Position numbers and translations under genes: made by a program
Shown here: positions 1 to 9,376 of the stretch, piece by piece
Position numbering within the stretch: the stretch's first letter is position 1
Layout: every line of letters starts with the position of its first letter
Assembly: GCA_002686955.1 (NCBI GenBank)
Contig: NYZA01000061.1
Span: 1-9,376 of the forward strand
Length of the DNA stretch: 9,376 nt
From: Gemmatimonadota bacterium
GTDB taxonomy: Bacteria > GCA-2686955
Reading direction: 5' to 3'
The notes under the pieces: model-generated
Told to the model about the DNA's origin: nothing
The model's database searches: none
What the model saw: the letters and a program-made list of their open reading frames with translations, nothing else

Positions 1-1397
1 CCGGGTTCGATCGGTCCAGGCCCTGGGATCTCGGCTGCGGCCGGCGGAACGATCTCGGCGTTGCGTCCGCGACGGGTATCGAGGCTGCTTTGGGCTCCCT
101 CGATCCGAGTCGTCGGGTGGGCTACGAGGGGCGAAGGGTCGTCTTTCACGGCGTGTAGACAGGGCTCCTTCGCGTCCTGGCTCGGCACGATCCGGTCCCG
201 CCCACTGGCGCAGGGCGCGAGCACGCCGTGATACCGAACCTGATGTGCGCGGGGTGGGGGAATCAGTGGTGCCAGCCGTTCGAGCAGCTCATGCCGTTCC
301 ATCACTACGTGCGTCGTCCCGTCCCGCCACGGCGTCTTCAGTCGATAGGCGAGTCGACGGTCCGGCAGCTCCTCGAGACGGTCGAGCGCGAGCGGCGGAC
401 GCGCGACATAGCGGCACAGCCGCTCGAGTCTTTTCCGATCGCGGGCGGGCACGGCCACATCCGCATGCAGGCTCATTCCGCCCTGACGAACACAGCGCGG
501 CGGGACCCTGGCTCCCGGCTCCACGCCGTCCACCTCCTCTCCGATCGGTTCCACCCGGTCCCCGAGGCGACGCCACGGTTCTCCCGCTTCGGGGCCGGTC
601 GCGATCCGCGATCGGATGGATGCGGCGCCGAGCATCGCCATCAATGGGTTGTCGGCCGAGATTGGATCCTCGTCCATCTCGGCCCCGCTCCGCTCGAGCC
701 GTCGACGGATCCGCCGCGCCGTCCCGGCTAGCACCCGAGCAACGTCGTCGGTCTCAGGTGGATCGAGCACAAGAAAGCAACCTGGATCATGCGCCGCCCC
801 TTCGTAGACGCCGTTGAGCACGAGCGCATGGAAGTGGGGCGTCAGGTTGAGCGCCGAGCCGAAGCGCTGGATGAACGTGACCGAACCACACAGACCACGG
901 CTGATCCCGAAGTCCCGCTTCGCCCGTCTTCGCTGATCCGCGAACAGAGCACGCAGGAAGCAACGCAACACCTCGCTCGTGAGCCGCGCGTTCCACGCGC
1001 AGCGATAGCGGAGTGGATAGGGCAGGGTCAGAACCCATTGTCGAACGGGCACTTCGGGAAGGACGTGATCGACGAGGTGGGCTGCCATGTCCGCCATGCG
1101 CCGACCGCCACATGAAGGACAGAATCCCCGGCCTTTGCACGAGAAGGCGACGAGCCGATCGTGACCGCAGCCGTCGCAGTGAACACGTAAGAAGCCATGG
1201 GCCAGAACACCACACTCGAGATAGGTACGAATCTCGCGTTCGACGAAGCGAGCGACGGGAGCACCCGCGGATCGGGAGCGCGAGAGGAACGACTCCACAT
1301 CCTCGCGGACAACACGATGGAGGAGCGTCTTCTCGGGCTCATGGCGTTCGTAACGAATCGCGACGGCTTCGCCGGGACCGGGCTCGAGCCGAATCTT
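1..1397 (-). CDS. IS91-family (ISCR-like) HUH transposase, C-terminus cut by window edge, no clear start codon
   Basis: This is a rolling-circle, single-strand transposase. I read it from the reverse strand (codons with low coordinate divisible by 3): about 465 codons are open from 1397 to the left edge with no stop. The N-terminal part carries a zinc-binding domain (CDGC at about 1167-1178, then CKGRGFCPSC at about 1110-1139), followed by GGRRMADMAAHLVDHVLPEVP, which is typical of IS91 relatives. The HUH motif HFHALVLNGVY lies at about 804-836. The putative catalytic Tyr is in LCRYVARPPLA (Tyr codon 408-410). Only one Tyr is present there, as in ISCR-like members rather than Y2 IS91. HQVRYHGVLAP (about 210-245) marks the Y2_Tnp C-terminal part; the usual last segment would lie outside the window. 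Upstream the frame is closed by TAG at 1398-1400, and no ATG, GTG or TTG precedes the conserved N-terminus; only ATT codons (1392-1394, 1356-1358) are available. It is either an ATT-started gene or a decayed one. Family assignment is secure; activity is uncertain. Confidence 0.9.
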
Positions 1398-2365: not shown

Positions 2366-3892
2366 ATGTCCGCGGAAGAGACGAAAACGAAGACCACAGA
2401 TGAGCTTGAAGGCGATGCCGGGCTCGACGCGCCCAACTCTGAGTTGGGCCCCGAGAACTCTGAACTCGTCATCGGTCTCGTATCGGCTGTGGGAACCCCA
2501 TTAGAGCTCGTCGAGCAAGCCATTCGCGACCGCCTGAATTCCTATTCGTATTCGACCGAAGTTCTTCGGCTCAGCGACTATTCGCGAAGCTTCCAATTGG
2601 GTGTCGAGGGCGAAGAATCCGGCGAAGATGGTCGGATCGACGCCGCTATGACCCGAGGAAATGACGCCAGAACCAAGACTGACCGGAACGACATCTTGGC
2701 GCTTGCGGGAATCGCCGACATTCAGAACAAACGAGGGGACGAGCCCGGTCCGCTACCTGGGCGAGCTTTCGTACTCAGGCAGCTAAAACGTCCCGAAGAG
2801 GTTCACTTGCTTCGTCGTACGTACGGCGAAGGATTCGTCCTGCTCGGCGTATACTGCCGTCGAAGTGAGCGCGAGAAGAACCTGCGGAAGGCGGGCGTAA
2901 GCGACGAGCGCGTTGAGGAGCTGATTATTCGCGACGAGCACGAGGCCCGCATGGGAGGTCAGGCCCTTCGCGACACGTTCCATCTTGCTGACTTGTTCCT
3001 CGAGGTAGGGAACGACCTCGACGCGGTGAAACAGGACCTTAGCCGGATGCTCGATCTTTTGTTCGGCTTTGGGATATCGACCCCCACTCGAGCGGAGTCT
3101 GGGATGTTTCATGCGCATGCCGCGTCCCTAAGGTCCGCGCAGCTAGGACGTCAGGTGGGTGCGGCGTTGCTAACGACTGACGGCGACATGATCTCGGTGG
3201 GCACCAACGAAGTTCCGCGTTCGGGAGGTGGCCTCTATTGGGAGGGCGACTCACCGGACGACCGCGATCATAAGCGTGGGCGCGATTCGAGCGACGAGGC
3301 CAAAGAGGAAATAGTGCGTGAAATCCTCGATGTTCTTGACGACACGTGGCGAAACACACCCTCTGAAGACAAACAGCGTTTGTTATCCGATCGAATTCAG
3401 GAACTTCGCACAACGAGGATCATGAGTTTGACCGAGTTCGGCCGAGCGGTGCATGCGGAAGCCGAAGCAATTGTTTCCGCAGCTCGACGTGGCACAGCCA
3501 CGGCGAAGTCAGAGTTGTATTGTACAACTTTCCCTTGCCACGTATGTGCCAAGCACATCGTGGCCGCCGGCATTCGCTCGGTGACGTATATCGAGCCCTA
3601 TCCAAAAAGCCGGGCACTCGATCTCCACAACGATTCAATCTCTCTGGAGGACGAGGAAGATGGAAAGGTGTTATTTCGCCCATTCGTCGGAGTCGCTCCA
3701 CGTGCCTTTGAGAGACTATTCTCGATGACCAAGCAGGATGGAAGCCGGATTTGGCGAAAGAACGGCGCCGGGACTCCAATTCTCGACCGAGTAAATCTGC
3801 GATTCAAAATGCCGTATCTCTCTGCGCTCCAGAGGGAGAGTCTCGTTGCTAAGGAACTGATTGAAATCACGCCGGAGGAGGGGAGGCGATGA
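2366..3892 (+). CDS. Anti-phage dCTP deaminase-type protein (P-loop-like N-terminus, zinc deaminase C-terminus)
   Basis: Predicted cytoplasmic defence enzyme, 508 aa, of the class that deaminates dC nucleotides to starve phage replication (DCD/AvcD-type; the activity is inferred from family). Residues 1-32 are acidic and low-complexity. ELVIGLVSAVGT (33-44) begins the P-loop-like domain, but it has no Lys where Walker A would need one. Family-like segments follow: RAFVLRQLKRPEEVHLLRRTYG (about 133-154) and ARMGGQALRDTFHLADLFLEV (about 194-214). The deaminase domain opens with SAQLGRQVGAALL (about 257-269) and GTNEVPRSGGGLYWEGD (about 279-295). It contains the catalytic HAE (His363, Glu365) and the zinc cysteines in PCHVC (Cys391, Cys394). 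All four key residues are intact. The start is chosen on ATG 2366 with GAGGGAG (2353-2359) 6 nt upstream. The gene overlaps the next ORF by ATGA, so the two are probably co-translated. It is convergent with the minus-strand operon. Confidence 0.9.
   Translation: MSAEETKTKTTDELEGDAGLDAPNSELGPENSELVIGLVSAVGTPLELVEQAIRDRLNSYSYSTEVLRLSDYSRSFQLGVEGEESGEDGRIDAAMTRGNDARTKTDRNDILALAGIADIQNKRGDEPGPLPGRAFVLRQLKRPEEVHLLRRTYGEGFVLLGVYCRRSEREKNLRKAGVSDERVEELIIRDEHEARMGGQALRDTFHLADLFLEVGNDLDAVKQDLSRMLDLLFGFGISTPTRAESGMFHAHAASLRSAQLGRQVGAALLTTDGDMISVGTNEVPRSGGGLYWEGDSPDDRDHKRGRDSSDEAKEEIVREILDVLDDTWRNTPSEDKQRLLSDRIQELRTTRIMSLTEFGRAVHAEAEAIVSAARRGTATAKSELYCTTFPCHVCAKHIVAAGIRSVTYIEPYPKSRALDLHNDSISLEDEEDGKVLFRPFVGVAPRAFERLFSMTKQDGSRIWRKNGAGTPILDRVNLRFKMPYLSALQRESLVAKELIEITPEEGRR
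2431..2449 (+). repeat. 19-nt near-perfect palindrome inside the 5' end of the deaminase gene
   Basis: GCCCAACTC (2431-2439) and GAGTTGGGC (2441-2449) are perfect reverse complements around a single T. The same place also holds a direct repeat, AACTCTGA at 2435-2442 and 2456-2463, again 21 bp apart, which encodes NSEL twice. It lies in the codons for the low-complexity N-terminal tail, before the first conserved segment. It could act as an operator or an mRNA structure near the start; it may also be coincidence. Confidence 0.5.
3874..3886 (+). promoter_or_regulatory. Strong Shine-Dalgarno stretch for the 58-aa ORF
   Basis: A purine run with GGAGGAG (3874-3880) and GGGGAGG (3880-3886) lies at the end of the deaminase gene, 8 and 2 nt before ATG 3889. 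It is much stronger than the ribosome-binding site of the deaminase itself. It supports genuine translation of the small ORF, although part of it also encodes the last deaminase residues (EEGRR). Confidence 0.6.
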
Positions 3893-4167: not shown

Positions 4168-5760
4168 CTATTCGAACCAATCACCGAACTGCCTACGAAA
4201 CGCGTCTTTTCGCTCCTCGGGCGACAGAAGTCTCGGCTCCCAGTCGGGGTGAATTCGCAGAGAGCCGACATGCGCATCCCATCCAAGTCGGCCTGACTGA
4301 AAGGCCTTCGTGCAGCCCTCGATGGGACATCTCTTAATCGAGCGGACTGTTGGAGCGAGAGCCGACGGAGAATTCCTCCTTCGCTGGGACCTCGACCCTG
4401 GGACGCCGGGCTCACGTGGAATAATCCCTCCGGTTCCCAGGATGCCGCCTTCCCAGGTGGGATCCACGAGGTAGGTGGACAGCGGAACGTTTGAAGACAC
4501 GAGGCGTACGAGAGCCGCCGCTTGCATCAGCGCATCGAAGTCGTCCTCGCTTCTCTCCGCCCATTCGGTTCCCGTAACCGTGACGCCCGCCGCCTTCAGC
4601 CAGGCAGCCTCACGGAGTTCCGCCAGGCGAATCGTACGCTCGCTGGCGTCTGTCTTGGAGAGCGGAAGAAGGTTTGCAGGCACGTTTGGAGCCAGGGCCA
4701 CCGCGTAACAGGCCCGAGGATACGATTCTGCGATGACGGGGCAGCCCGTTGATTGAACTTCACTTAGCTCCACCTCGAAGGGCCAAATTCGAAATGCCTG
4801 CGTGCCAGAACGCCGTACTGCAAGAATTTCGCGCCACAGGGCGATTGACCCGCCCCCGACTGCACCTCGTATTCCGCTGATCACAAAGACGGTCTTTCCT
4901 CCCGTGATCCGCTCCAGTTGCCGAAAGACGGTCGCCCGGCCGCCGGCGCTCTCGATGTACCGATTGAGCCCGCCCTCTCCCCTGTCGACAGCGAAGAAGG
5001 GGGCACGGGGGCGCCACCGCGTGGCATCTCTAATGGGCTTCTCCAGAGCCTTTCCCTGGTCGAGCCATTCCATCGCCGAAGGGAAGCTGTCTTCTCCCGA
5101 ACGCAATCCATAGCCGGCAGGCAACCCCAAAACAGCGTCGATTGCGACCAGACAGGAACCGCCCATTGGACCCGCGAGGGCCTGAGCCTGGGAGAGCACT
5201 TCCTCGAACGACCAACCGCCTTCCGGAGGTTTGGGGCGCTCGATCCGCCACCCGTTAGCCTTGGGGCAGGCCGTATAGACTGCCCTTCCCTTCCTCGGCT
5301 TAGCCCAGTCGACGCTCACGATCGGAATCGGCTTCGTGAATGGCAGCTCACCGAGACCCCGATCCAGAATTCGCCGGAGGAAAGGGAGAATGGGCCGATC
5401 GGCGTCTGCCCAGTCGAGGCCGCCGAGCTGATCCGAGGTGATCCATCGCGTCTCTGAATGCTCCGTGGGGCGCGGCTCCCCGCTCACAAGATTCGAGCAA
5501 TAGACGTCGAGCACGATCTCCCGGCCCTGGACGACCGATTCCCCCCGGCCGATCCAGAGTCCGATCTCGATCTCGATGCCGAGTTCCTCCTGAACCTCGC
5601 GAGACAGCGCCGATTGCGGAGATTCGCCGCGCTCGACCTTCCCGCCAGGAAACTCCCAGGAACCGGCCAGTGCCATCCCTGGACCCCGCTGAGCAACGAG
5701 ACATCGCCCTTCCTGAATAATTGCGGCTCCGACGACGTGTATGACAGACGGCTTCGTCAA
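4168..5760 (-). CDS. Nudix hydrolase - DUF429 - zinc-finger-like fusion protein
   Basis: 530 aa, probably cytoplasmic. Residues 1-130 are a MutT/NudG-like Nudix domain: LAGSWEFPGGKVERGES, then a perfect Nudix box (Gly40, Glu46, Arg54, Glu55, Glu58, Glu59, Gly61). Such enzymes hydrolyse (deoxy)nucleoside triphosphates, often oxidised or modified ones. Residues about 145-430 resemble DUF429, an RNase-H-like fold: IVSVDWAK (Asp151), VAIDAVLGLPAGYG (Asp208), IAESYPRACYA (Glu345) and SEDDFDALMQAAALVRL (Asp406, 407, 409) supply the acidic residues. A linker of about 45 residues leads to a C-terminal zinc-finger-like motif, CPIEGC (Cys478, Cys483) with His497 and His504 in WDAHVGSLRIHPDW; the spacing (4/13/6) is looser than classical C2H2. 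The start is TTG 5760, because upstream codons run without ATG or GTG to TGA 5797-5799 and the ribosome-binding site is weak. It follows the helicase gene in the same frame, so coupled expression is likely. The substrate is unknown. Confidence 0.88.
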   Translation of the reverse strand: MTKPSVIHVVGAAIIQEGRCLVAQRGPGMALAGSWEFPGGKVERGESPQSALSREVQEELGIEIEIGLWIGRGESVVQGREIVLDVYCSNLVSGEPRPTEHSETRWITSDQLGGLDWADADRPILPFLRRILDRGLGELPFTKPIPIVSVDWAKPRKGRAVYTACPKANGWRIERPKPPEGGWSFEEVLSQAQALAGPMGGSCLVAIDAVLGLPAGYGLRSGEDSFPSAMEWLDQGKALEKPIRDATRWRPRAPFFAVDRGEGGLNRYIESAGGRATVFRQLERITGGKTVFVISGIRGAVGGGSIALWREILAVRRSGTQAFRIWPFEVELSEVQSTGCPVIAESYPRACYAVALAPNVPANLLPLSKTDASERTIRLAELREAAWLKAAGVTVTGTEWAERSEDDFDALMQAAALVRLVSSNVPLSTYLVDPTWEGGILGTGGIIPREPGVPGSRSQRRRNSPSALAPTVRSIKRCPIEGCTKAFQSGRLGWDAHVGSLRIHPDWEPRLLSPEERKDAFRRQFGDWFE

Positions 5761-5799
5761 CAGATCAGTCTCGCTGAGGTTCTCTTCTCTAACCGCTCA

Positions 5800-8700
5800 T
5801 CACGCCGGCGGCTCGAAGATCGGCCAAAGGGAATCCGGCACCGCCTCGGAGAGGCGCCATCGGATGGTAATGGGTTGATCGCCCTCCCAGTCGATGAATT
5901 CGAGGGGTCCGCAGTAGACGAAAGGCGCGCCCTTCCCGTCAATCTTTGAGTGCTTTCGAATAAAGAGATGAATCGTGATTCCTCGCTCCATGTGGTGCTG
6001 GAATCTCTCTCCCGTGCCCGAGTCTCGACGCGTTCGGTTCTGGCTCTGCCACTCAAAGACATCTCGGGAAAGGAAACGATCTCCGTACCGGTGCTCCTCA
6101 GGAAGGTTGGACTTCTCAAGCGTGACGAAGAAAAAGAACTCTTCCCCGCGCCGGACAACGCCCTGCCCCCAATTTCGCGAGTAGTCGTGACCAAAGCGCT
6201 CGGCGACCTCCTGGCGCGGATAACTGTCCCAGAGCGTAACGCCCGTTGTTCCTTCGCCGGCCGGCGCGAGCAACCATCGGCCTTCGACCTCGGCGAACTC
6301 AACCAACTGTCGAGTGCCGGGCTTGCCTGCGTCTGGGCCGAACCAGCTCTGGAGCACCTCCGCGAGAACGTTCGCTTCGCCCCCAGGTCGTCGCATGACA
6401 TTGACGGCCACCTTGACGAAGTTCGCTTCAAACGATTCGCCAGCTGCGTCGACAGGGACCCAGTCCTCGGGAATCCCCTCGACTCGCTCTCGGTCGGGAA
6501 GTCGGATGATTGGCTTCCCACTTGCGTGACTCACCCGACACTGAAAACGCCCTCCTTCACCGGCGCCTACCCTCGGACGGGCCAGGTACTCAGCGAGACG
6601 AAACTCCGCCAGCTCCCGAACGAGCTCAGAAATCGTCTCGGCCTGATCAACGGGGACATCGAATGTGCTCTCAAAAGCCCCGTCGCGGTATGCGAAGTAC
6701 GACCGCCCTCCGGTTCCTCTTCCTCCCGTCCACGCAGCGATCGGATTCTCTTCCAAGTGCCTTCGAAGACCAGGCTGCGAATCAATCGACGGGCCCACGT
6801 CCCCGACGAGCACAGGCGAGCGACGAGCCACCCGCTCCACCGCCGACGTCAAATCTTCGACGGAGATTTGTCCCGGAAAGCACTCCTCCTCCAACATCGC
6901 GAGCAGAACCAGCATCTTGTAGCTGCGCGTCATCGGAGTCGACTCGAGGTGCTCGAGAAACGTCCCCGTGGCCTGATGACTGGCTATGAGCTCAGACGCC
7001 TCGGAGAGGTCGCCCATGGCCTCTACGAAGCGAAGCCAGGAGCCGTATCCGCGAGCGGCCGCGCGAGGCGAGTATCCGTCGTGAAGCGCTTCTGAAGCTG
7101 TGGGGCGTCGACCATTGAGTTCTCGAAACGTCTCGTAGTAGCTCCGAACAACGTCCCCGCCGGTCGGCTCACGCAAGAGTGAGCGAAGGAGATCGATGGT
7201 CTCCAGCTCGTACGTCACCTCGCATCCGGGCGGAAGATCGGCGGTTCCCGACTGGAGCCTCTCCAACACCTCGCGAACGTGCTGGTCTCCGGGCACCAGC
7301 TCGAAGAGCGCCTGGACCTTCAGCAAGAAGGAGCGGTGGTTTCCGATGTAGTCTATGATGGCGAGGTCCCGCTTGCCTTCTGCTTTGCGGAGCCCACGAC
7401 CGAATTGCTGAGTCCACAGCAGCTGGGAATCCGTCGGCCTCAGCATCAGAACCGTATCCACGTGGGGGATATCGACGCCCTCATTGAACATATCGACCGC
7501 GAAGACCACTTGGAGGTCGCCCGTTTCGAGCTTCTCGAGCGAGCCGGCTCTGGGGTCGCTGCCCTCTCCGGAATGGACCGCCGCCGCCTTGATTCCCGAT
7601 GCGACAAAGAAGTCACGCATATAGTCGGCGTGCCGCTTCGAGCAACAGAAGGCGAGCACCTTGTCGCCACCGTGCTGCTGGAGCTGCTCGAGAGCATTTT
7701 GAGCCCGGTCCTGGGTCGCCACGGCGGTCGTGAGCTGTTCTTCGTCAAAGCGATTGCTTCGCCATGGGATGTTTGAATAGTCGACATCGTCGGGCACACC
7801 GAAATACCGAAAGCTCGAAAGGAAGCCCCGCTCGATCGCCTCGCGCACGCCGCAGCGAAAAACGAGGTTCTCACCGCAGAGAGACAGGAGATCTCCCCCG
7901 TCCGTGCGCTCAGGCGTCGCCGTCAGACCCAGTAGGAACTTGGGCTCGAAGTAGTCAATCAGTCGCCGGTAGGTACGGGCGGAGGCGTGATGAAACTCAT
8001 CAACGATGAGGTAGTCGAAGGCACGGCGATCGAATCTCCGCAGATGGGTCTCTCGGCTAAGGGTCTGCACCGAGGCGAAGAGGACGTCCGCCGCCTCGTC
8101 TTTCTGGGTCCCCGTGTAGAGCCCGAGCTTTGCCGTCGGCCGAATCCGCCGGAAGGTCTTCATAGCCTGTCCGAGGATCTCCTCGCGATGTGCCACAAAG
8201 AGAACTCGACGGAACTCGGGACGGCTGCTGTCGAACGCGGAGAGCCAAGTCTTCCCCAGACCGGTCGCGAGGACGACGAGGCCCGCCCGGGCGCCTTCGG
8301 CACGGGTCCCTTCGAGGGCAGTAAGGGCCTCCTTCTGCACGTCGTGCGGCTCCGGCGGCGGCTCGGGCGGATCCGCGTCGACTTCGACGCGATCACCTGT
8401 GGAGGTTGCTTTCACATCCGGCCGTCGATCTCGATAGGCGTCGATCCAGGATTGGTCGAGAGTGACAGTCGATGGACTCGAGAAGAGGGCCTCGAAGCCC
8501 TCGACCACCTCAGCAAAGCCGATCGCGTCTCGGGCAGGCACCGCGCGGTAGTTCCACTCGACGCCTTGGATGAGGGCCGTTCGCGTGAGGTTCGAGCTGC
8601 CTACAAAGGCGACCCCACCCTCCGCCGCCCCCTCGAAGATGTAGGTCTTGGGATGAAACGAGCGATCGGTGGTGGAGTACACCCGAAGCTCGACGCGATC

Positions 8701-9376
8701 TTCATACTGGGCCTGAATATCGAGAAGCCGTTCGAGGGCGTCCGGGTCGGTGACTCCCTGGTAATCGCCGGTCAAGAACTGTAGCCGCCCTCCCCGGCTA
8801 CAGAGGTCTCGAAGATGCTCGTCGAGCAGATCGACGCCACTGGGCAGCACGAAAGCGACCGCAAGCCGAGCGACCATGGCCGCGTCCAGATGGATCTTCA
8901 GATGGGGAAGCAGCGGGTCGTCTTCACCACCGCGAATGAGCGCGGGGAGGTCCGTGACGGTCGGTACCTCCTCCCGGTCTCGAACCGCTGAGCTACCGTC
9001 GGGAGCCTCGCGGAGGTAGTTTTGCATCTGGGGAATGACGCCGCGCACGCCACCACGAGGATCCGCCATGTCGCCTGAGTATCGAGGGATCACATGGACG
9101 TGGAGGTGCGGGACGGTCTGACCGGCGGAAGCCCCGATATTTACGCCGACGTTGAACCCATCCGGTCGGTGGGTCTGTTCGATTGCCGATCGGGCGACAT
9201 CAATCGCGCCGAATAGCTCTCTCTGTTCTTCTGCCGTTGCCTCAAACCAACTCGCGATATGGCGCTTAGGGACAAGCAGCGCATGACCGGGGCTCACGGG
9301 GTAGGAATCCCAGATTCCCAGGACGTGCTCGCCGAGATGAAACAGTCGATCCGCGGCGGGTCGGCAAAACGGACAG
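5800..9376 (-). CDS. HIT - PLD-like nuclease - SF2 helicase - DUF3427 protein, 5' end beyond window
   Basis: The frame is open to the right edge, so the start lies outside. GTG 9295-9297 is not the start, because the preceding codons encode CPFCRPAADRLFHLGEHVLG, the normal N-terminal part of a HIT domain. Numbering the 1191 visible residues from that Cys: HIT domain about 1-120, with the zinc-type CPFC and the triad HLHVHV (His90, 92, 94). PLD-like domain about 150-300, with one HPK motif (His241, Lys243, Glu248) and GSSN (Asn262), implying dimeric use as in one-motif PLD nucleases. SF2 helicase about 343-690, with ATGLGKT (Lys375, Thr376), VDEFHH (459-463), TATPER (485-490) and motif VI QQFGRGLRK (Arg660, Arg663). 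A DUF3427 C-terminus includes FFFFVTLEKS and FEWQSQNRTRRDSGTG. The protein probably opens and cuts or processes DNA. Helicase, PLD and DUF3427 together are common in defence islands; the HIT head is less usual. It ends in TGA 5800-5802, followed at once by a second TGA. Confidence 0.93.
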   Translation of the reverse strand, partial: CPFCRPAADRLFHLGEHVLGIWDSYPVSPGHALLVPKRHIASWFEATAEEQRELFGAIDVARSAIEQTHRPDGFNVGVNIGASAGQTVPHLHVHVIPRYSGDMADPRGGVRGVIPQMQNYLREAPDGSSAVRDREEVPTVTDLPALIRGGEDDPLLPHLKIHLDAAMVARLAVAFVLPSGVDLLDEHLRDLCSRGGRLQFLTGDYQGVTDPDALERLLDIQAQYEDRVELRVYSTTDRSFHPKTYIFEGAAEGGVAFVGSSNLTRTALIQGVEWNYRAVPARDAIGFAEVVEGFEALFSSPSTVTLDQSWIDAYRDRRPDVKATSTGDRVEVDADPPEPPPEPHDVQKEALTALEGTRAEGARAGLVVLATGLGKTWLSAFDSSRPEFRRVLFVAHREEILGQAMKTFRRIRPTAKLGLYTGTQKDEAADVLFASVQTLSRETHLRRFDRRAFDYLIVDEFHHASARTYRRLIDYFEPKFLLGLTATPERTDGGDLLSLCGENLVFRCGVREAIERGFLSSFRYFGVPDDVDYSNIPWRSNRFDEEQLTTAVATQDRAQNALEQLQQHGGDKVLAFCCSKRHADYMRDFFVASGIKAAAVHSGEGSDPRAGSLEKLETGDLQVVFAVDMFNEGVDIPHVDTVLMLRPTDSQLLWTQQFGRGLRKAEGKRDLAIIDYIGNHRSFLLKVQALFELVPGDQHVREVLERLQSGTADLPPGCEVTYELETIDLLRSLLREPTGGDVVRSYYETFRELNGRRPTASEALHDGYSPRAAARGYGSWLRFVEAMGDLSEASELIASHQATGTFLEHLESTPMTRSYKMLVLLAMLEEECFPGQISVEDLTSAVERVARRSPVLVGDVGPSIDSQPGLRRHLEENPIAAWTGGRGTGGRSYFAYRDGAFESTFDVPVDQAETISELVRELAEFRLAEYLARPRVGAGEGGRFQCRVSHASGKPIIRLPDRERVEGIPEDWVPVDAAGESFEANFVKVAVNVMRRPGGEANVLAEVLQSWFGPDAGKPGTRQLVEFAEVEGRWLLAPAGEGTTGVTLWDSYPRQEVAERFGHDYSRNWGQGVVRRGEEFFFFVTLEKSNLPEEHRYGDRFLSRDVFEWQSQNRTRRDSGTGERFQHHMERGITIHLFIRKHSKIDGKGAPFVYCGPLEFIDWEGDQPITIRWRLSEAVPDSLWPIFEPPA

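What the first reader, a model, noticed from the sequence alone, without database searches (positions are those of the whole stretch)
4168..9376. Two-gene operon combining HIT, PLD nuclease, SF2 helicase, DUF3427, Nudix, DUF429 and a zinc-finger-like module
The sequence shows two nucleotide-hydrolase folds (HIT, Nudix) genetically tied to a DNA translocase, a PLD nuclease and a probable RNase-H-fold domain. PLD-helicase-DUF3427 proteins are known in accessory DNA; pairing with a Nudix-DUF429-zinc-finger protein suggests a system that either senses or degrades altered nucleotides, or clears modified phage DNA. This is the best candidate for an under-described defence or repair system in the window. 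The joint function is inference.
Basis: partly seen in the sequence, partly recalled or inferred. Interest (0 to 1): 0.75.

Follow-up and report, generated by a model that had tools for sequence, protein, structure and literature searches.

The report
SauUSI-like restriction enzyme with nucleotide-cleaning partner
Two neighbouring genes encode a bacterial enzyme that probably shreds foreign DNA carrying methylated cytosines and a partner that probably removes stray modified nucleotides, a pairing that recurs beside the well-studied Staphylococcus enzyme SauUSI and may explain how such cells avoid attacking themselves.

Summary
On the minus strand, P0002 (5800-9375, 5' end cut by the contig) is HIT-PLD-SF2 helicase-DUF3427, and 39 bp behind it P0001 (4168-5760) is Nudix-DUF429-C2H2-like finger; catalytic motifs are intact. 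P0002 has the architecture of SauUSI, the 5-methylcytosine-dependent type IV restriction enzyme (sequence E 5e-94; model aligns along SauUSI 29-952), with an added N-terminal HIT domain. In 181 relatives, four clades each carry their own accessory: Nudix beside SauUSI-proper (11 of 13 loci, including S. aureus SauUSI itself, 1 bp gap), a fused methyltransferase, a fused HIT (the window's clade), or a helical extension. Nudix is adjacent in 6 of 167 other loci. MazG also recurs. MutT2/NudG-type Nudix and MazG-fold DCTPP1 both hydrolyse 5-methyl-dCTP. I infer that these partners keep modified dNTPs out of host DNA, preventing self-cleavage. The Nudix-DUF429-finger fusion was found only here; one DUF429 relative lies directly behind McrBC. 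New variant of a known kind; partner function untested.

The parts
9018..9375 (-). HIT domain of P0002 (Fhit-like GQTVPHLHVHVIPR; His90, His92, His94), 5' end cut by contig end
   Evidence: PF01230 E 2.6e-20; His triad invariant in 12 HIT-clade homologues
8476..8943 (-). PLD-family nuclease domain of P0002 (H241-x-K243-x4-E248 ... GSSN262)
   Evidence: PF13091 E 1.7e-7; same H(X)K(X)4E motif as SauUSI 119-126
7296..8352 (-). SF2 helicase/translocase ATPase (Walker A ATGLGKT with K375, DEFH box)
   Evidence: PF04851 E 3.2e-36, PF00271 E 4.4e-13; SauUSI 7clg E 4.7e-94
5803..6255 (-). DUF3427 / SRA-like target-recognition domain
   Evidence: PF11907 E 3.7e-25; profile hits SauUSI 797-918 E 8.7e-17; D1099 and W1109 match SauUSI D858 and W868
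5800..9375 (-). whole P0002, HIT-PLD-helicase-coupler-DUF3427 protein, 1191 aa, 5' open
5350..5760 (-). Nudix domain of P0001 (box 40-62 GKVERGESPQSALSREVQEELGI)
   Evidence: PF00293 E 7.7e-18; PADLOC PDC-S07 E 1.2e-40; MutT2 5zrc best PDB match E 5.9e-26
4432..5340 (-). DUF429-like domain of P0001, predicted RNase H fold (D151, D208, E345, D406, D409)
   Evidence: PF04250 E 0.01, below cut-off; aligned with two DUF429-like relatives at 26-28% identity
4249..4329 (-). C2H2-like zinc-finger motif CX4CX13HX6H of P0001
   Evidence: motif only; no Pfam match
4168..5760 (-). whole P0001, Nudix-DUF429-finger protein, 530 aa, TTG start

Best explanation
P0002 is a SauUSI-type, ATP-driven, modification-dependent (type IV) restriction enzyme: the SRA-like DUF3427 domain reads a modified cytosine, the SF2 motor translocates, and the PLD nuclease dimer cuts. 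P0001 is its nucleotide-pool partner. Shredding modified DNA and salvaging it releases 5-methyl- (or 5-hydroxymethyl-) dCMP that kinases can return to triphosphate and polymerases insert into the host's own DNA. The MutT2/NudG-type Nudix hydrolyses such triphosphates, so the chromosome stays unmodified and is not cut by P0002. The fused HIT domain, and MazG in some relatives, serve the same housekeeping on related nucleotides. DUF429 with its finger probably adds a second, RNase H-fold nuclease acting on fragments. Shown here: architecture, intact motifs, clade-specific accessories, Nudix adjacency far above background. Inferred: target base, Nudix substrate, self-protection, roles of HIT and DUF429.
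For: P0002 vs SauUSI: phmmer E 4.7e-94, PADLOC mREase_IV E 2.9e-119, model aligned 145-1188 to SauUSI 29-952 with Z 25, DUF3427 profile hits the SauUSI SRA domain and the D858 and W868 equivalents are kept in 31 and 32 of 33 relatives. Nudix: MutT2 best match; [quoted passage not shown] NudG kcat/Km 3e5 for 5-methyl-dCTP (PMC3744803). Co-occurrence: 11/13 SauUSI-proper loci vs 6/167 others, Fisher p 8e-12; S. aureus SauUSI with Nudix 1 bp upstream; S. suis PDC-S07 and type IV RM co-localised 23/23 (PMC12813430). MazG-fold genes directly behind two Lactobacillales SauUSI-like genes; DCTPP1, also MazG fold, prefers 5-methyl-dCTP and alters global methylation (PMC4491611).
Against: In the window's own clade only 2 of the other 38 HIT-fused loci have an adjacent Nudix, so the Nudix is not obligatory there. 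Pyrimidine-type Nudix enzymes also act on dCTP, CTP and oxidised nucleotides, so the substrate is not fixed by sequence. Y831 and M829 of the SauUSI pocket are not conserved (V1073, Q1071). No biochemical data exist for either protein. The NTX clade (68 rows) manages with almost no nucleotide enzyme nearby.
Confidence: 0.5

Rival explanations
1. The Nudix is offensive: it destroys the modified dNTP precursors (5hm-dCTP, 5m-dCTP) of phages that replace cytosine, while P0002 cuts their DNA, so two layers act against the same modified phages.
For: Same enzymology; an anti-phage dCTP deaminase lies convergent in the window (NF041025 above cut-off), so dNTP-pool attack is locally in use.
Against: The deaminase was seen in no other SauUSI-like locus. 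Destroying the modified precursor would push phage DNA toward unmodified cytosine, which P0002 would no longer cut.
Confidence: 0.17
2. HIT and Nudix handle a signal nucleotide (ApnA, NAD-type or adenylylated) that switches the nuclease on or off, as regulators rather than pool cleaners.
For: HIT is closest to Ap4A phosphorylase and Fhit-type proteins; PADLOC holds a HIT model named ThsC that matches at E 2e-11.
Against: No synthase or sensor gene recurs in the neighbourhoods; the Nudix is MutT2-type, not ADP-ribose-type.
Confidence: 0.15
3. It is a DNA-end or DNA-protein-crosslink repair module: aprataxin-like HIT, PLD end-processing, helicase, with SprT/Spartan-like protease in relatives.
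For: SprT-like metallopeptidase lies upstream, same strand, in 9 loci, 8 of them HIT-fused and the ninth (L087) with HIT in a split upstream ORF; none in other clades.
Against: The whole chain downstream of HIT matches a restriction enzyme including its SRA reader; the loci sit among defence genes; the HIT sequence looks Fhit-like, not aprataxin-like (from memory of the motifs).
Confidence: 0.1
4. P0001 is a chance neighbour in a defence island.
For: The Nudix-DUF429-finger fusion was seen only here; the island also holds IS91-type transposase and deaminase genes.
Against: Co-directional with a 39-bp gap; PDC-S07-type Nudix is about 1 per genome, giving about 0.06% chance per locus of adjacency, yet it recurs beside SauUSI-like genes in several phyla.
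Confidence: 0.08

Closest known systems
SauUSI (S. aureus 5mC/5hmC-dependent type IV restriction enzyme, PDB 7clg)
   Same: PLD-SF2 ATPase-coupler-SRA order, HxKx4E motif, helicase motifs, SRA Asp and Trp; Nudix gene beside it (S. aureus locus L101)
   Different: P0002 has an extra N-terminal HIT domain and an extra beta-rich stretch (about 935-1040) before the SRA domain; it falls in a separate clade; the partner Nudix carries DUF429 and a finger and lies downstream
PDC-S07 (PADLOC phage-defence candidate, Nudix)
   Same: P0001 residues 6-128 match at E 1.2e-40
   Different: The model covers only the Nudix; it also rings in ordinary genomes such as E. coli, so alone it is not a defence marker
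MutT2 / NudG (pyrimidine Nudix hydrolases)
   Same: Best solved relative; Nudix box and the Asp of the WxPADxP stretch kept as DAD
   Different: Stand-alone housekeeping enzymes; P0001 is fused to DUF429 and sits by a type IV enzyme
McrBC with a DUF429 neighbour (Microvirga plasmid, L233)
   Same: DUF429 relative 7 bp behind a McrC-like gene, another 5mC-dependent system
   Different: Unrelated restriction machinery; the McrB-like gene there is broken into two reading frames

Membership tests
SauUSI-type type IV restriction enzyme | PLD nuclease domain with HxKx4E and distal GS-N | tested here: met
   H241, K243, E248, S260, N262; motif in SauUSI from PMC7913695
SauUSI-type type IV restriction enzyme | SF2 helicase-like ATPase | tested here: met
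   PF04851, PF00271; Walker A K375, DEFH
SauUSI-type type IV restriction enzyme | C-terminal SRA-type target recognition domain (DUF3427) | tested here: met
   profile match to SauUSI 797-918 E 8.7e-17; D and W pocket residues kept; whole model aligned to SauUSI
SauUSI-type type IV restriction enzyme | cleavage depends on 5mC or 5hmC and ATP, two sites | not testable with these tools
   biochemistry needed
SauUSI-proper clade | groups with S. aureus SauUSI in the PLD-helicase tree | tested here: not met
   window falls in the 54-row HIT clade (support 98), not with L101
MutT2/NudG-type Nudix hydrolase | exact Nudix box and closest match to pyrimidine-type enzymes | tested here: met
   box 40-62; PRK10546 and MutT2 among best matches, though below equivalog cut-offs
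MutT2/NudG-type Nudix hydrolase | hydrolysis of 5-methyl-dCTP | not testable with these tools
   assay needed
HIT superfamily | HxHxHxx motif in a HIT domain | tested here: met
   H90, H92, H94; PF01230 E 2.6e-20; invariant in 12 homologues
DUF429 | Pfam PF04250 above gathering score | tested here: not met
   16 bits vs 23; relationship rests on alignment to two divergent DUF429-like proteins

The most novel reading that the evidence does not exclude
Modification-dependent restriction enzymes come with dedicated anti-autoimmunity partners that cleanse the dNTP pool of the very base they cut. Nudix, MazG and HIT are interchangeable solutions, and the Nudix beside SauUSI in S. aureus is the missing half of that textbook system; in the window it has been joined to a nuclease and a finger.
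Probability: 0.35. Interest if true: 0.78.

Novelty: new variant of a known kind. Interest (0 to 1): 0.55.

Why it matters
Type IV enzymes have no protective methylase; how hosts avoid self-cutting when salvaged modified nucleotides re-enter their DNA has no assigned answer that I found. A Nudix gene beside SauUSI, recurring across phyla, makes that directly testable in laboratory strains, would give the PADLOC candidate PDC-S07 a function, and would affect how SauUSI-carrying hosts are engineered.

Tried and rejected
Viral contigs scan with P0002 found nothing; with P0001 it found only Nudix matches. The window's phylum has only two held genomes, so kin could not be compared. A single-sequence model of P0001 was useless (pLDDT 34), so the DUF429 fold is not confirmed. 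Foldseek and VIA list mostly helicases; the HIT domain and the 935-1040 stretch were not tested on their own. PADLOC scan of flanking ORFs (145 near, 76 distant) showed defence families in both sets, so it gives no enrichment test. DUF429 linkage to type IV systems: McrBC in L233 and an Mrr-type gene in L236, but not in Sinorhizobium L238 or L237, so too few to claim. Only one held paper contains both 'SauUSI' and 'Nudix' words, and the passages read do not pair them.

Full report
OBSERVATION. The window is one complete 9376-bp contig of a 4.28-Mb draft genome; only one other genome of its phylum is held. On the minus strand lie P0002 (5800-9375, open at the contig end; relatives start about 4 residues earlier) and, 39 bp downstream on the same strand, P0001 (4168-5760). 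Pfam confirms HIT, PLD, ResIII, Helicase_C and DUF3427 in P0002 and Nudix in P0001; DUF429 is below its cut-off but alignment with two DUF429-like proteins (26-28% identity) keeps D151, D208, E345, D406 and D409. Motifs are intact.

IDENTITY OF P0002. Its best solved relative is 7clg, E 4.7e-94, matching 145-685, which the structure search titles SauUSI. PADLOC's best model is mREase_IV, E 2.9e-119. A profile of the DUF3427 region finds SauUSI 797-918 and nothing else in the PDB, E 8.7e-17. SauUSI's pocket residues are given in PMC7913695: D858 and W868 are D1099 and W1109 here and nearly invariant in 33 relatives; F841 and I842 are F1083 and V1084; Y831 and M829 are not kept (for the last two, one search used positions that were ten too low, and I read Q1071 and V1073 from the alignments instead). 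An AlphaFold2 model (mean pLDDT 76, pTM 0.37) aligns 145-1188 to SauUSI 29-952, Z 25, rmsd 28.6, so domain order matches but domain placement does not.

FAMILY SURVEY. I gathered 186 SauUSI-like loci: 80 by a genome scan, 91 from samples of four phyla, 14 from plasmid records, plus the window. A tree of 181 PLD-helicase domains has four blocks. (A) SauUSI-proper, 13 rows: Nudix within 1 kb in 11, all within 25 bp, upstream or convergent. (B) 68 rows, nearly all with a helical N-terminal extension: Nudix in 2. (C) 45 rows, many with a fused or adjacent TehB-like methyltransferase: Nudix in 2, one of them a Nudix-methyltransferase fusion (L051). (D) 54 rows including the window, HIT fused in most, degenerate in Rhodobacterales: Nudix in the window, L021 and L022. 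A vs all others without the window: 11/13 vs 6/167, Fisher p 8e-12; even the 6 exceed background (about 0.06% per locus, estimated from 18 PDC-S07 hits in 16 genomes and an assumed 4000 genes each). Loci are related, so these p-values are indicative only, and some plasmid loci in A were fetched after a Nudix had been seen near them; of the eight members of A that came from unselected phylum samples, seven have the Nudix (L118, L145-L148, L150, L151; not L180).

THE FOUNDING CASE. In S. aureus record L101 the Nudix gene (WP_000755954) ends 1 bp before the SauUSI frame, which is interrupted in that record. Its sequence matches PDB 5x1x over the 121 residues shown. In S. suis, PDC-S07 and type IV RM were the only one of 24 co-occurring pairs consistently co-localised, 23/23 (PMC12813430). 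The passage I read gives no mechanism.

WHY A NUDIX. The window Nudix is closest to MutT2. [quoted passage not shown] NudG also hydrolyses it (PMC3744803). MazG-like genes lie 17 and 8 bp behind SauUSI-like genes in two Lactobacillales, and the MazG-fold DCTPP1 prefers 5-methyl-dCTP and changes global DNA methylation in human cells (PMC4491611). Two unrelated folds sharing this activity beside a 5mC-dependent nuclease is the main reason for the self-protection model. It remains inference: none of the window's proteins was assayed.

HIT, SprT, DUF429. The HIT triad is invariant in 12 clade members, so it is probably active. A SprT-like metallopeptidase lies upstream, co-directional, in 9 HIT-clade loci and in no other clade; the window's contig ends before that position. 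An HNH_2 endonuclease recurs near about 8 loci. DUF429-finger fused to Nudix was seen only in the window. A stand-alone relative lies 7 bp behind McrC in Microvirga, another in an island with an Mrr-type gene, two others in no such setting.

VERDICT. A real two-gene unit whose core is a new architectural variant of a known restriction enzyme. The general Nudix link is stronger than the finding claimed for SauUSI-proper and weaker for the window's own clade.

Noticed in passing
window 2366-3892 +: Anti-phage dCTP deaminase (NF041025 above cut-off, PADLOC dCTPase E 5e-152; zinc motif HAE...PCHVC intact), convergent with P0001.
   Followed up: partly
window 3-1298 -: IS91-type transposase (Y2_Tnp and Zn_Tnp_IS91), cut by the contig end.
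   Followed up: no
L051:8988-9980, overlapping the SauUSI-like gene by 4 bp: Nudix fused to a TehB-like methyltransferase; related methyltransferases are fused N-terminally to the ~1285-aa SauUSI-like proteins (e.g. L058) or sit directly upstream (L017). Role unknown.
   Followed up: partly
L021:9489-9998 and 8 other HIT-clade loci: SprT-like zinc metallopeptidase with a zinc-ribbon-like tail upstream of HIT-PLD-helicase genes.
   Followed up: partly
L085:11900-12901: SauUSI-like protein in which the DUF3427 end is replaced by a Peptidase_S24 (LexA-type) domain.
   Followed up: no
P0002 residues about 935-1040 (window about 6250-6570): Beta-rich stretch between coupler and SRA domain, seemingly kept in HIT-clade members that lack DUF3427; no Pfam match; may be a second reader domain.
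   Followed up: no
L233:399-4933: McrB-like gene in two frames, McrC-like and DUF429 genes in a row on a Microvirga plasmid.
   Followed up: partly
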